Shown here: positions 1 through 24,492 of the stretch, one piece after another
Position numbering within the stretch: position 1 is the stretch's first letter
How the letters are laid out: each line of letters opens with the position of its first letter
From: an uncultured Clostridia bacterium
GTDB taxonomy: Bacteria; Bacillota_I; Bacilli_A; RF39; UBA660
Assembly (NCBI GenBank): GCA_945871105.1
Contig: CAMBUO010000008.1
Coordinates: 1 to 52,795, forward strand
Reading direction: 5' to 3'
Length of the DNA stretch: 52,795 bases
Program-made: the position numbers and the translations under genes
Notes under the pieces: model-generated
Databases searched by the model: none
What the model was told of the DNA's origin: nothing
Seen by the model: only the letters and a program-made list of their open reading frames with translations

Positions 1-70
1 TTGTTTAAAATAAAAACTACCAAGATAATTTATATTATTATTTTGGTAGTTTATTTAGATTTTATAAGTA

Positions 71-523
71 TTATTTTAATTCTTCTATCATTAAGTTTTT
101 AATATAATCAATATCCGTAAAAAATAAGTTCAGTCCACTAGATTTTAAAGATAACATGTACTCAAAATCATCTATAATTTCTTTTTCAACTGCAGATGAT
201 ATTTTTATAAATTTACCATCAATTGTATGTCTACTTTGAATATATTTTTCTAATGTCGGAAAAGCATTTTGAATTAAAATAGCTATTTTTTTTATTAATA
301 TTGTTTTGCAAGTTCCGTATTTCTTTTCTTTTTTATCAATAATAGTTTTATATTTTTCAATTTTAGTACTTAAAGGAATAAACCTTAATATATCATCATC
401 TTTTATAGCTAAGTAAGATGGTCTGGAATGACCATTTTCATGATTTATCATTAAACCTTTATTATTGATTCTATCAAAAAATTCATCTTTGATATGATAT
501 AAATATCCAGTCTGTACTTTCAC
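71..523 (-). CDS. Type III toxin-antitoxin endoribonuclease toxin, ToxN/CptN-like
   Basis: A 150-aa protein resembling CptN/ToxN toxins, which cut RNA and are held inactive by a repeat RNA antitoxin. Visible family features are RPSYLAI near residue 33, FIPLSTKIEKYK near 50, LIQNAFPTLEKYI near 80 and a HTIDG motif near 100. I start it at GTG 523, because AGGAG (532-536) lies 8 nt upstream; the ATG at 553 has no ribosome site and abuts a terminator. Upstream on the same strand are a promoter, two 49-50-nt repeats and a terminator, the standard type III order. The family is assigned from remembered sequence patterns; activity is inferred. Confidence 0.85.
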   Translation of the reverse strand: MKVQTGYLYHIKDEFFDRINNKGLMINHENGHSRPSYLAIKDDDILRFIPLSTKIEKYKTIIDKKEKKYGTCKTILIKKIAILIQNAFPTLEKYIQSRHTIDGKFIKISSAVEKEIIDDFEYMLSLKSSGLNLFFTDIDYIKNLMIEELK

Positions 524-554
524 GTTATCAACTCCTGTACATACTTCTATCATA

Positions 555-591
555 AAATAAAAGAAAACTCCATTATATTAACAGAGTTTTC
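555..591 (-). terminator. Terminator between antitoxin RNA repeats and toxin gene
   Basis: An 8-bp inverted repeat, GAAAACTC/GAGTTTTC (584-591 with 563-570), is followed on the minus strand by TTTTATTTTA. In type III systems a leaky terminator here sets the ratio of antitoxin RNA to toxin mRNA. It lies immediately before the toxin ribosome site. Confidence 0.85.
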
Positions 592-724
592 AAACATTTA
601 CAACCGAGATCATTTATTGCTCGCGCCACTCGGAAGCGATTAACATTTCACGACTAGGATCATTTATTGCTCGCACCACCTAGAAGCGATTAACATTTAC
701 ATATTAAGGCACCTTTTCAAATTC
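592..724 (-). ncRNA. Type III antitoxin RNA (tandem repeats)
   Basis: Two full repeats and a partial third with periods of 49 and 50 nt; the shared ACATTT segments begin at 594, 643 and 693. Each unit holds a conserved core (ATCATTTATTGCTCGC) flanked by a 5-nt inverted repeat that differs between units while keeping its pairing: CCGAG/CTCGG in one, CTAGG/CCTAG in the other. Such covariation supports a folded RNA. Type III antitoxins are processed into pseudoknotted units by their toxin. The position, repeat number and downstream terminator all fit; the pseudoknot itself is inferred. Confidence 0.83.
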
Positions 725-730
725 AATAAT

Positions 731-759
731 AATATACTATATTTTATGATAAAAGTCAA
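731..759 (-). promoter_or_regulatory. Sigma-A-type promoter of the type III TA locus
   Basis: On the minus strand TTGACT (754-759) and TATATT (731-736) are separated by 17 nt. Transcription would start near 724, just ahead of the antitoxin repeats. Confidence 0.75.
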
Positions 760-868: not shown

Positions 869-1601
869 ATGAATAAGATATTGCTTTCTTTTATATTAAC
901 TAGTATAGCAGGTTTATCAACTATTCTTGGTTATTTTATTATTTACATAAAAGGTAATAAAAATAAAATTATTTCTAGCCATTGCTAGTGGAGTAATGTT
1001 AACTATTTCTGTAACTGATCTTATACCATAATCTTTTACTTATTTAAAAGATTATAATTTCTTTTTTAGATTATTATTAATTACCTTTTCTTTTATTTTA
1101 GGAATATTTTTATCATATTATATTTCTTTAAAAGTAGAAAAAGAACATACTAATTCTTTAAAAAAAATAGGAATAATTTCGATGTTAGCTATTATTTTAC
1201 ATAATATACCAGAAGGAATTATTACTTTTATGGTAACAGGAATCAATTTAAATTTAGGTATTAAATTAGTAATTGCTATTAGTTTACATAATATACCAGA
1301 AGGTATAAGTATTGCTATTCCACTTTTTTATGCAACTAAAAAGAAATTAAAAACTTTTCTCATGGTTTTAATTTCCGGTTTAAGTGAAATATTAGGAGCA
1401 ATTCTTTCTTATTTATTTTTAAGTAAATTCATGAATAACTTTTTAATAGGTAATATCTTTAGTTTAATAGCAGGTATCATGATAAATATTAGTTTAACGG
1501 AAATATTACCGGAAACTTTTAAATATCAAGAAAATAAATATTTATATTTAGGATTTAGTTTAGGAGTAATAATAATGATTATAAGTCATTTTATTCTTTA
1601 A
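869..1601 (+). pseudogene. ZIP-family metal transporter, frameshifted and with a nonsense codon
   Basis: The 3' part encodes the ZIP core with two HNIPEG motifs, the metal-binding signature of ZupT/ZIP zinc and iron importers, and several membrane segments. The 5' part starts at ATG 869 but ends in TAG after about 39 codons. A frame change in the A-rich stretch near 960-980 leads into LAIASGVMLTISVTDLIP, then a TAA at 1029-1031 where the family has Glu. Two independent lesions argue for decay rather than a sequencing slip. The 3' end overlaps the convergent yigZ-like gene by 4 nt. A fragment restarting at 1182 could be translated but would lack the first helices. Confidence 0.8.
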
Positions 1602-23222: not shown

Positions 23223-23299
23223 GGGTGATTAGCTCAGTTGGTTAGAGCATCTGCCTTACAAGCAGGGGGTCATAGGTTCGAGTCCTATATCGCCCACCA
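23223..23299 (+). tRNA. tRNA-Val (anticodon TAC)
   Basis: Acceptor GGGTGAT/ATCGCCC, anticodon loop CTTACAA, TTCGAGTC T-loop, encoded CCA. First gene of the cluster. Confidence 0.96.
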
Positions 23300-23306
23300 T
23301 TATTAT

Positions 23307-23382
23307 GCCGAAATAGCTCAATTGGTAGAGCAATTGATTTGTAATCAATAGGTTACGGGTTCGATTCCTGTTTTCGGCACCA
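23307..23382 (+). tRNA. tRNA-Thr (anticodon TGT)
   Basis: Acceptor GCCGAAA with TTTCGGC, anticodon loop TTTGTAA, encoded CCA. Separated from tRNA-Val by 7 nt. Confidence 0.96.
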
Positions 23383-23385
23383 GTT

Positions 23386-23698
23386 GGAGAGATAGCGAAG
23401 TGGCTAAACGCGACAGACTGTAAGGTATTGAAGATAAATATCTTCTAAAAACTTGCACCTCAAAGTAGAAATATTTTGAGTGGACATCGCTAATTCGGGG
23501 AACCCTTCCAGGTTATGCTGATGGCAATCCCGAGCTAGATAGTAATATCGAGTGTAGAGACTTTATACGATGTACCTATGGGAAACTATGGTAAAGAGAA
23601 AGTCCAGACTACAAACAAACTTGTTTGGTAACGAAAGTTATAGTAGTATGAAATCTGTTCCTTCGGGTTCGATGGTTCGAATCCATCTCTCTCCACCA
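23386..23698 (+). tRNA. tRNA-Tyr (anticodon GTA), interrupted by a group I intron
   Basis: Exon 1 (23386-23421) carries acceptor GGAGAGA, the D-arm and the anticodon arm as far as GACTGT. Exon 2 (23651-23698) begins AAATCTGTT and contains the long variable arm (CCTTCGGG), TTCGAAT T-loop, TCTCTCC and CCA. Joined, the anticodon region is GACTGTAAATCTG, a standard tRNA-Tyr. The break lies between U35 and A36 of the GUA anticodon, so the tRNA is non-functional unless spliced. No second tRNA-Tyr is visible in the window. Confidence 0.95.
23422..23650 (+). ncRNA. Group I self-splicing intron in tRNA-Tyr
   Basis: A 229-nt insertion with group I core elements in order: a P2-like hairpin GAAGAT/ATCTTC, the P element AATTCGGGGAACCC (about 23491), a J/P6 region with GGCAATCCCGAGC, the R element GTGTAGAGACTTTATACG (about 23553) and the S element AAAGAGAAAGTCC (about 23593). 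These closely recall the small IC3 introns of bacterial tRNA genes such as Azoarcus tRNA-Ile. The exon before it ends in U and the intron ends in G, as the class requires. No ORF or homing endonuclease fits inside. The P1 guide pairing is not obvious to me by eye. Confidence 0.92.
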
Positions 23699-23704
23699 CG
23701 TTAT

Positions 23705-23779
23705 TGCCTCGTAGCCAAGTGGTAAGGCACGAGACTTTGACTCTCGCATGCGCTAGTTCGAATCTAGCCGAGGCAACCA
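23705..23779 (+). tRNA. tRNA-Gln (anticodon TTG)
   Basis: Acceptor TGCCTCG/CGAGGCA, anticodon loop CTTTGAC, encoded CCA. Confidence 0.95.
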
Positions 23780-23788
23780 ATCATTTAT

Positions 23789-23864
23789 GTCCCGTTAGCT
23801 CAGTAGGTAGAGCATTTGACTTTTAATCAAAGGGTCGTGAGTTCGAATCTCGCACGGGACACCA
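23789..23864 (+). tRNA. tRNA-Lys (anticodon TTT)
   Basis: Acceptor GTCCCGT/ACGGGAC, anticodon loop CTTTTAA, encoded CCA. Confidence 0.96.
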
Positions 23865-23873
23865 TTTATATGT

Positions 23874-23962
23874 GCCTGAGTGGCGGAATAGGTAGACGCA
23901 CAGGACTTAAAATCCTGCGAGCATCAAAACTCGTGTCGGTTCAAGTCCGACCTTAGGCACCA
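23874..23962 (+). tRNA. tRNA-Leu (anticodon TAA)
   Basis: Class II tRNA with long variable arm; acceptor GCCTGAG/CTTAGGC, anticodon loop CTTAAAA, encoded CCA. This is the isoacceptor that carries a group I intron in cyanobacteria; here it is uninterrupted. Confidence 0.95.
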
Positions 23963-23969
23963 TTTTTTT

Positions 23970-24062
23970 GGAGGAATACCCAAGTCCGGTTGAAGGGATC
24001 GGTCTTGAAAACCGAGAGGTCGTGCAAGCGGCGCAGGGGTTCGAATCCCTTTTCCTCCGCCA
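23970..24062 (+). tRNA. tRNA-Ser (anticodon TGA)
   Basis: Class II tRNA with long variable arm; acceptor GGAGGAA/TTCCTCC, anticodon loop CTTGAAA, discriminator G, encoded CCA. Confidence 0.95.
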
Positions 24063-24073
24063 ATATTTTTTAT

Positions 24074-24150
<77 letters not shown>

Positions 24151-24154
24151 AAAT

Positions 24155-24230
24155 GGTCTCGTAGTGCAGTGGTTACCACGTCTGCCTGTCACGCAGAAGA
24201 TCGCGGGTCCGATCCCCGTCGAGACCGCCA
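24155..24230 (+). tRNA. tRNA-Asp (anticodon GTC)
   Basis: Acceptor GGTCTCG/CGAGACC, anticodon loop CTGTCAC, discriminator G, encoded CCA. Confidence 0.96.
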
Positions 24231-24239
24231 TTTTTATTT

Positions 24240-24315
24240 GGCTCTGTAGCTCAGTCGGTAGAGCAAGGGACTGAAAATCCCTGTGTCGGTGGTTCGATTC
24301 CACTCGGAGCCACCA
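24240..24315 (+). tRNA. tRNA-Phe (anticodon GAA)
   Basis: Acceptor GGCTCTG/CGGAGCC with one G-U pair, anticodon loop CTGAAAA, encoded CCA. Confidence 0.96.
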
Positions 24316-24328
24316 TTTGTTATTGTTT

Positions 24329-24405
24329 GCGCTCATAGCTCAATTGGATAGAGCGTTTGGCTACGGACCAAAAGGTTATGGGTTCGACTCCTATTGGGCG
24401 CACCA
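24329..24405 (+). tRNA. tRNA-Arg (anticodon ACG)
   Basis: Acceptor GCGCTCA/TGGGCGC with a wobble pair, anticodon loop CTACGGA; A34 would be edited to inosine by TadA. CCA is encoded. Confidence 0.95.
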
Positions 24406-24415
24406 TTTTATAGTT

Positions 24416-24492
24416 CGGGAAGTGGCTCAATTTGGTAGAGCACTTGGTTTGGGACCAAGGGGTTGCAGGTTCAAATCCTGTCTTCCCGACCA
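24416..24492 (+). tRNA. tRNA-Pro (anticodon TGG)
   Basis: Acceptor CGGGAAG/CTTCCCG, anticodon loop TTTGGGA, encoded CCA. Last gene of the cluster. Confidence 0.96.

What the first reader, a model, noticed from the sequence alone, without database searches (positions are those of the whole stretch)
71..759. Complete type III toxin-antitoxin locus
Promoter, two 49-50-nt RNA repeats with compensatory arm changes (CCGAG/CTCGG versus CTAGG/CCTAG), a terminator, then a CptN/ToxN-like toxin with a GTG start. All parts are intact. Such systems can act in phage defence.
Basis: partly seen in the sequence, partly recalled or inferred. Interest (0 to 1): 0.8.

Follow-up and report, generated by a model that had tools for sequence, protein, structure and literature searches.

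The report
CptIN RNA-antitoxin locus, damaged toxin
This is a known kind of bacterial self-poisoning switch, a CptIN locus in which a small folded RNA blocks an RNA-cutting toxin; the RNA half looks intact, but the toxin carries two unusual changes that may have disarmed it.

Summary
On the minus strand there is a promoter (TTGACT-17-TATATT), two 50-nt tandem RNA repeats (698-599), a strong terminator (591-563) and a GTG-started toxin gene (523-71). The repeats form the CptI pseudoknot: stem 1 is constant, and three of five stem-2 pairs are swapped on both sides between the two copies. The toxin passes NCBIfam CptIN (128.9 bits, cut-off 90), matches solved CptN (4rmo), and its predicted fold is closest to 4rmo. 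[quoted passage not shown]

One reader claim fails. "All parts intact" is doubtful: the toxin has W47->R at a position that is W in all 101 other relatives aligned, and a private 5-residue deletion that shortens the hairpin carrying E. rectale CptN's adenine-contacting residues. Low dN/dS (0.06) makes the lesions recent or tolerated. The genome holds a second CptIN without these lesions and one toxin-less repeat. Across the family 27 of 68 repeat arrays have no detectable toxin, while no intact toxin clearly lacks an array: toxins are lost first. A phage-defence role is unproven.

The parts
731..759 (-). sigma-70-type promoter of cptI (TTGACT, 17 nt, TATATT)
   Evidence: an equivalent promoter lies at the same distance in nearly all toxin-associated relatives
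649..698 (-). CptI repeat 1; predicted processed monomer 697-648 (50 nt). Pseudoknot: S1 UCGC/GCGA, S2 CUAGG/CCUAG
   Evidence: cut position by homology to CptI_Er (PMC4627078), inferred
599..648 (-). CptI repeat 2; predicted processed monomer 647-599 (49 nt). S1 UCGC/GCGA, S2 CCGAG/CUCGG (three pairs changed on both sides relative to repeat 1)
563..591 (-). intrinsic terminator between antitoxin and toxin (13-bp stem, U-rich tail)
71..523 (-). cptN toxin gene, GTG start, 150 aa, with W47->R and a 5-residue deletion after A81
14..52 (+). inverted repeat (AAACTACCAAGATAA...TTATTTTGGTAGTTT) downstream of cptN, likely bidirectional terminator; the same element follows the second cptN of this genome, and a diverged version follows that of G006

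Best explanation
This is a chromosomal CptIN-family type III toxin-antitoxin locus. The promoter drives an RNA of two repeats, each folding into an H-type pseudoknot; the terminator stops most transcripts, and read-through makes the CptN endoribonuclease. CptN would cut the RNA at A^AAUGUU, just before each repeat, and be held inactive in a complex with the 49-50-nt pieces (shown for E. rectale CptIN, inferred here). In this copy the toxin has probably lost or weakened its activity recently (W47->R and a 5-residue deletion) while the RNA half is unchanged: an early step of a toxin-first decay also seen in other genomes of the family.
For: Family: NF047359 128.9 bits, 4rmo 1.9e-13, Foldseek 4rmo TM 0.79/0.77, best hit. 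RNA: two-stem pseudoknot with 93.5% paired cells and 112 double-changed cells over 71 distinct repeats, far above shuffles and slid controls; three compensatory pairs within the window. L2 loop AAUAAAUG matches the functional A-minor-twist loop of CptI_Er, AUAUAAAUG (PMC4627078). Lesions: W in 101 of 101 other aligned relatives and in 4rmo, R only here; the five deleted columns are filled in the other full-length relatives; predicted hairpin shortened from strands 75-80/83-88 (lesion-free paralogue) to 75-77/81-83. Toxin-first loss: 27 of 68 arrays have no toxin match and several more have truncated or interrupted ones, while toxins lacking an array are cut by contig ends, are decayed fragments, or have a weak array.
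Against: No expression or toxicity data. dN/dS against the closest relative used (L027) is 0.06, so the protein stayed constrained until recently; the changed toxin could still work. The catalytic Ser-Ser/Thr-Lys residues (S52, T53, K54) are present, and the E. rectale adenine-contact residues Asp81/Ser85 are not strictly conserved in this clade. The lesions lie within 400 nt of a contig end and cannot be checked against reads.
Confidence: 0.7

Rival explanations
1. A fully working CptIN locus: the W47->R change and the shortened hairpin are tolerated or have been retuned to this antitoxin, and the toxin is active.
For: Open frame, catalytic residues kept, dN/dS 0.06 against L027, confident predicted fold (pLDDT 86.9) with 4rmo as best match.
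Against: Both changes are private among about 100 relatives; the W precedes the catalytic strand and is W in distant E. rectale too. The model is less confident and less close to 4rmo than that of the lesion-free paralogue.
Confidence: 0.25
2. The lesions are assembly or sequencing errors at a contig edge in a genome assembled from a mixed population, where two CptIN versions were interleaved.
For: The window starts at a contig end; 55-nt exact repeats shared with the end region of contig C5 suggest an unresolved assembly graph.
Against: A clean in-frame 15-nt deletion and a single T->A change with all else conserved are not typical of misassembly; neither occurs in the C5 copy.
Confidence: 0.05
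3. A ToxIN or TenpIN locus, or a chance tandem repeat beside an unrelated gene.
For: Same gene order and distant fold similarity to AbiQ (4glk).
Against: CptIN model far above cut-off, ToxN Pfam model silent, repeats 49-50 nt rather than about 35 nt; covariation excludes chance.
Confidence: 0.02

Closest known systems
CptIN_Er of Eubacterium rectale (PDB 4RMO; PMC4627078)
   Same: Gene order, two repeats, H-type pseudoknot with short L1 and A-rich L2 containing AUAAAUG, homologous toxin with a Ser-Ser/Thr-Lys(Arg) active-site motif.
   Different: About 30% toxin identity in the structural alignment; 49-50 nt rather than 45 nt units; His where Er has Tyr104; window toxin lacks five hairpin residues around Er Asp81-Ser85 and has Arg for the conserved Trp46.
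CptIN loci of uncultured gut Bacilli (e.g. L027/L052, L053, L025/L054)
   Same: 81-86% toxin identity for the closest, near-identical repeats with the same pair of stem-2 sequences.
   Different: Their toxins lack the W->R change and the deletion; no ZIP gene was found in their fetched flanks.
ToxIN / AbiQ
   Same: Type III logic and distant toxin fold.
   Different: Different toxin family and shorter repeats; anti-phage activity shown for some ToxIN and AbiQ, not for CptIN (PMC5086642).
Pseudo-ToxI repeats of phage PhiTE (PMC3475682)
   Same: Antitoxin repeats without a toxin, as in the orphan CptI arrays seen here.
   Different: Phage-borne escape device; the orphan arrays here are in bacterial genomes and untested.

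Membership tests
CptIN (type III toxin-antitoxin) | Toxin matches the CptN family | tested here: met
   NF047359 128.9 bits, cut-off 90; 4rmo 1.9e-13; Foldseek best hit 4rmo
CptIN (type III toxin-antitoxin) | Tandem RNA repeats upstream of the toxin, separated by an intrinsic terminator, one promoter | tested here: met
   same layout in relatives
CptIN (type III toxin-antitoxin) | Each repeat forms an H-type pseudoknot | tested here: met
   covariation of both stems over 71 distinct repeats; minimum-energy folding of single repeats is no better than shuffles, and it cannot show pseudoknots
CptIN (type III toxin-antitoxin) | Intact ribonuclease active site | tested here: inconclusive
   S52, T53, K54 present; hairpin columns of Er Asp81-Ser85 deleted and Trp46 equivalent replaced
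CptIN (type III toxin-antitoxin) | Toxin processes and is neutralised by its cognate RNA | not testable with these tools
   needs kill/rescue assay and RNA sequencing
ToxIN | ToxN_toxin PF13958 match | tested here: not met
   no match in the whole genome nor for the toxin; the controls also rang nowhere, so the negative is weak
Anti-phage defence system | Protects against phage | not testable with these tools
   PADLOC silent; published CptIN tests negative (PMC4627078, PMC5086642)

The most novel reading that the evidence does not exclude
In these gut Bacilli, CptI repeat arrays are kept without a toxin because they protect the cell against CptN encoded by incoming copies (an RNA anti-addiction device), and the window locus is a toxin in the act of being disarmed while its RNA is retained.
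Probability: 0.15. Interest if true: 0.6.

Novelty: new member of a known kind. Interest (0 to 1): 0.35.

Why it matters
It places CptIN loci widely in uncultured gut Bacilli, with enough sequence diversity (71 distinct repeats in one alignment) to test the pseudoknot by covariation. It also gives a testable case of how an addicted cell gets rid of a toxin-antitoxin module: toxin first, RNA later, with toxin-less arrays left behind.

Tried and rejected
Pfam ToxN: no match, but the control also rang nowhere, so this is weak. Pfam and PADLOC name no family for the toxin. Rfam has no matching RNA family at gathering or relaxed thresholds. Single-sequence folding of the repeats is no better than shuffles (z -0.86 and -0.04); covariation was used instead. 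Starting at the upstream ATG (553) was rejected: it sits at the terminator U-tract and relatives start at the GTG column. A new toxin family behind the orphan arrays was considered and not supported: downstream genes differ from array to array. Phage origin: no match in the phage collection, one viral contig with CptIN, two repeat-pattern scans returned only that contig, and one distant plasmid match in Megamonas.

Full report
What is there. On the minus strand of the window's first 760 bases lie, in order, a sigma-70-type promoter (TTGACT, 17 nt, TATATT), two tandem 50-nt repeats (698-649 and 648-599), an intrinsic terminator (591-563; 13-bp stem, z = -6.75) and an open reading frame of 150 codons from GTG (523-71) with AGGAG upstream. 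The GTG aligns with the start column of the relatives (M in 88, L in 5, V in 4, I in 1), so the longer ATG ORF of the mechanical list is unlikely.

Family. NCBIfam's CptIN model scores 128.9 bits (cut-off 90). The best solved relative is CptN of Eubacterium rectale, 4rmo (1.9e-13), which is also the best fold match of the predicted structure (TM 0.79/0.77), followed by MazF-type toxins and AbiQ. Pfam's ToxN model is silent, though it rang in none of the control genomes.

The RNA. Between the two window repeats there are nine differences. Six of them make three double compensatory changes in stem 2 (U-A to C-G, A-U to G-C, G-C to A-U), and stem 1 is unchanged. Random placement of nine substitutions gave such an outcome 2 times in 400,000. 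A covariance model built from 13 seed repeats found 89 repeats in 47 sources and 191 in 81 more; the sources overlap in part. On 71 distinct repeats both stems are supported (93.5% of cells paired, 112 cells changed on both sides, against 34 in shuffles and at most 29 when partners are slid). The alignment was fitted to stem 2 of the model, so its counts lean that way; stem 1 was not part of the model. The L2 loop AAUAAAUG corresponds to the CptI_Er loop A27-G35 (AUAUAAAUG), whose kink nucleotide and A29 are needed for antitoxicity (PMC4627078). By homology to the CptI_Er boundaries, cuts at A^AAUGUU would release 50- and 49-nt monomers; this is inferred.

The toxin is not plainly intact. Among the aligned relatives, window position 47 (Er Trp46) is W in all 101 others and R only here. 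The window alone among the 95 full-length toxins lacks five core residues; the gap falls on the hairpin that in E. rectale carries Asp81 and Ser85, described as specifying the scissile adenine (PMC4627078). In predicted structures the hairpin shrinks from strands 75-80/83-88 in the lesion-free paralogue to 75-77/81-83 in the window protein, and mean pLDDT is 86.9 against 91.3. Two cautions: Er Asp81 and Ser85 are not strictly conserved in this clade, and dN/dS against the closest relative used is 0.06. The lesions are therefore recent, or tolerated. I put about 70% on a damaged or weakened toxin.

Genome context. The same genome has a second CptIN at the end of contig C5, without these lesions and with a TTG start, and one single repeat without a toxin on contig C10. 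Exact 55-nt stretches link the window's start and its 873-819 region to the C5 locus, and part of the ZIP-transporter pseudogene beside the window's locus is repeated behind the C5 toxin. Genome G006, of another genus, has a similar arrangement (ZIP gene, cptIN, same kind of terminator, repeated ZIP start). The two loci are therefore either neighbours in tandem or two strain versions of one site; the assembly cannot tell. The genes near the locus are housekeeping (recA, cotE, Ham1, a Mur ligase, enolase), not a prophage.

Family-wide pattern. 37 of 193 same-family genomes match CptN and 48 have repeats. Of 68 repeat arrays, 27 have no CptN match within 450 nt and several others have truncated or interrupted toxins. 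A few of the 27 end at contig edges (G169, G092:C93), and L144 and L149 keep only the ends of a toxin gene. The toxins without an array are cut by contig ends, are fragments, or (G143:C15:43328) have a weak array. The orphan repeats keep stem 2 as well as toxin-linked ones (96.1% against 96.0% of cells paired), although the model that found them favours intact stems, and their promoters are on average weaker (mean 9.6 against 10.4 of 12). This fits the expected order of decay of an addiction module. Active retention as protection against incoming CptN is possible but not shown; phage PhiTE's pseudo-ToxI repeats are a precedent for toxin-less antitoxin RNA (PMC3475682).

Function. CptIN_Er stabilises a plasmid in E. 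coli but did not protect against over 200 coliphages, and no anti-phage activity had been reported for the two CptIN systems tested. Phage defence by this locus is therefore unsupported, not excluded.

Verdict. A genuine, new member of a known family; the added value is the probably damaged toxin and the toxin-first decay pattern.

Noticed in passing
window 869-1601: ZIP-family zinc transporter reading frame broken by a frameshift near 963 and a stop at about 1029; its C-terminal part matches Pfam Zip (80.1 bits). Part of it is repeated behind the second cptN of the genome.
   Followed up: partly
L034 1501-1592 (G000:C10:31645-31736): Single CptI repeat with terminator and no toxin, behind an apparent second copy of the ppdK 3' end with a gene in between.
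   Followed up: partly
L139-L162 (G007, G012, G021, G024, G027, G034, G079, G107, G136, G162, G173 and others): CptI arrays without an intact toxin, mostly followed by unrelated genes (e.g. similar hydrolase-like genes in L139 and L159); several keep strong promoters.
   Followed up: partly
19 of 87 toxin loci with over 500 nt upstream (e.g. L001, L003, L006, L008, L020): The 3' end of a gene resembling pyruvate phosphate dikinase lies within 1.4 kb upstream of cptIN, suggesting a preferred insertion site.
   Followed up: partly
L055, L118, L114, L007 flanks: Exact direct repeats of 39-375 nt between the upstream and downstream flanks of cptIN.
   Followed up: no
L132 5001-5480 (IMGVR_UViG_3300011008_002676): The only viral contig with CptIN; nearby genes have few phage-family matches (one weak terminase-like stretch), so its viral nature is uncertain.
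   Followed up: partly
L161 (G011:C8), genes behind the orphan repeat: Behind an orphan CptI repeat lie two genes that resemble an AbiE-type pair by eye (not tested by profile).
   Followed up: no
window 23223-24492: Cluster of eleven tRNA genes.
   Followed up: no
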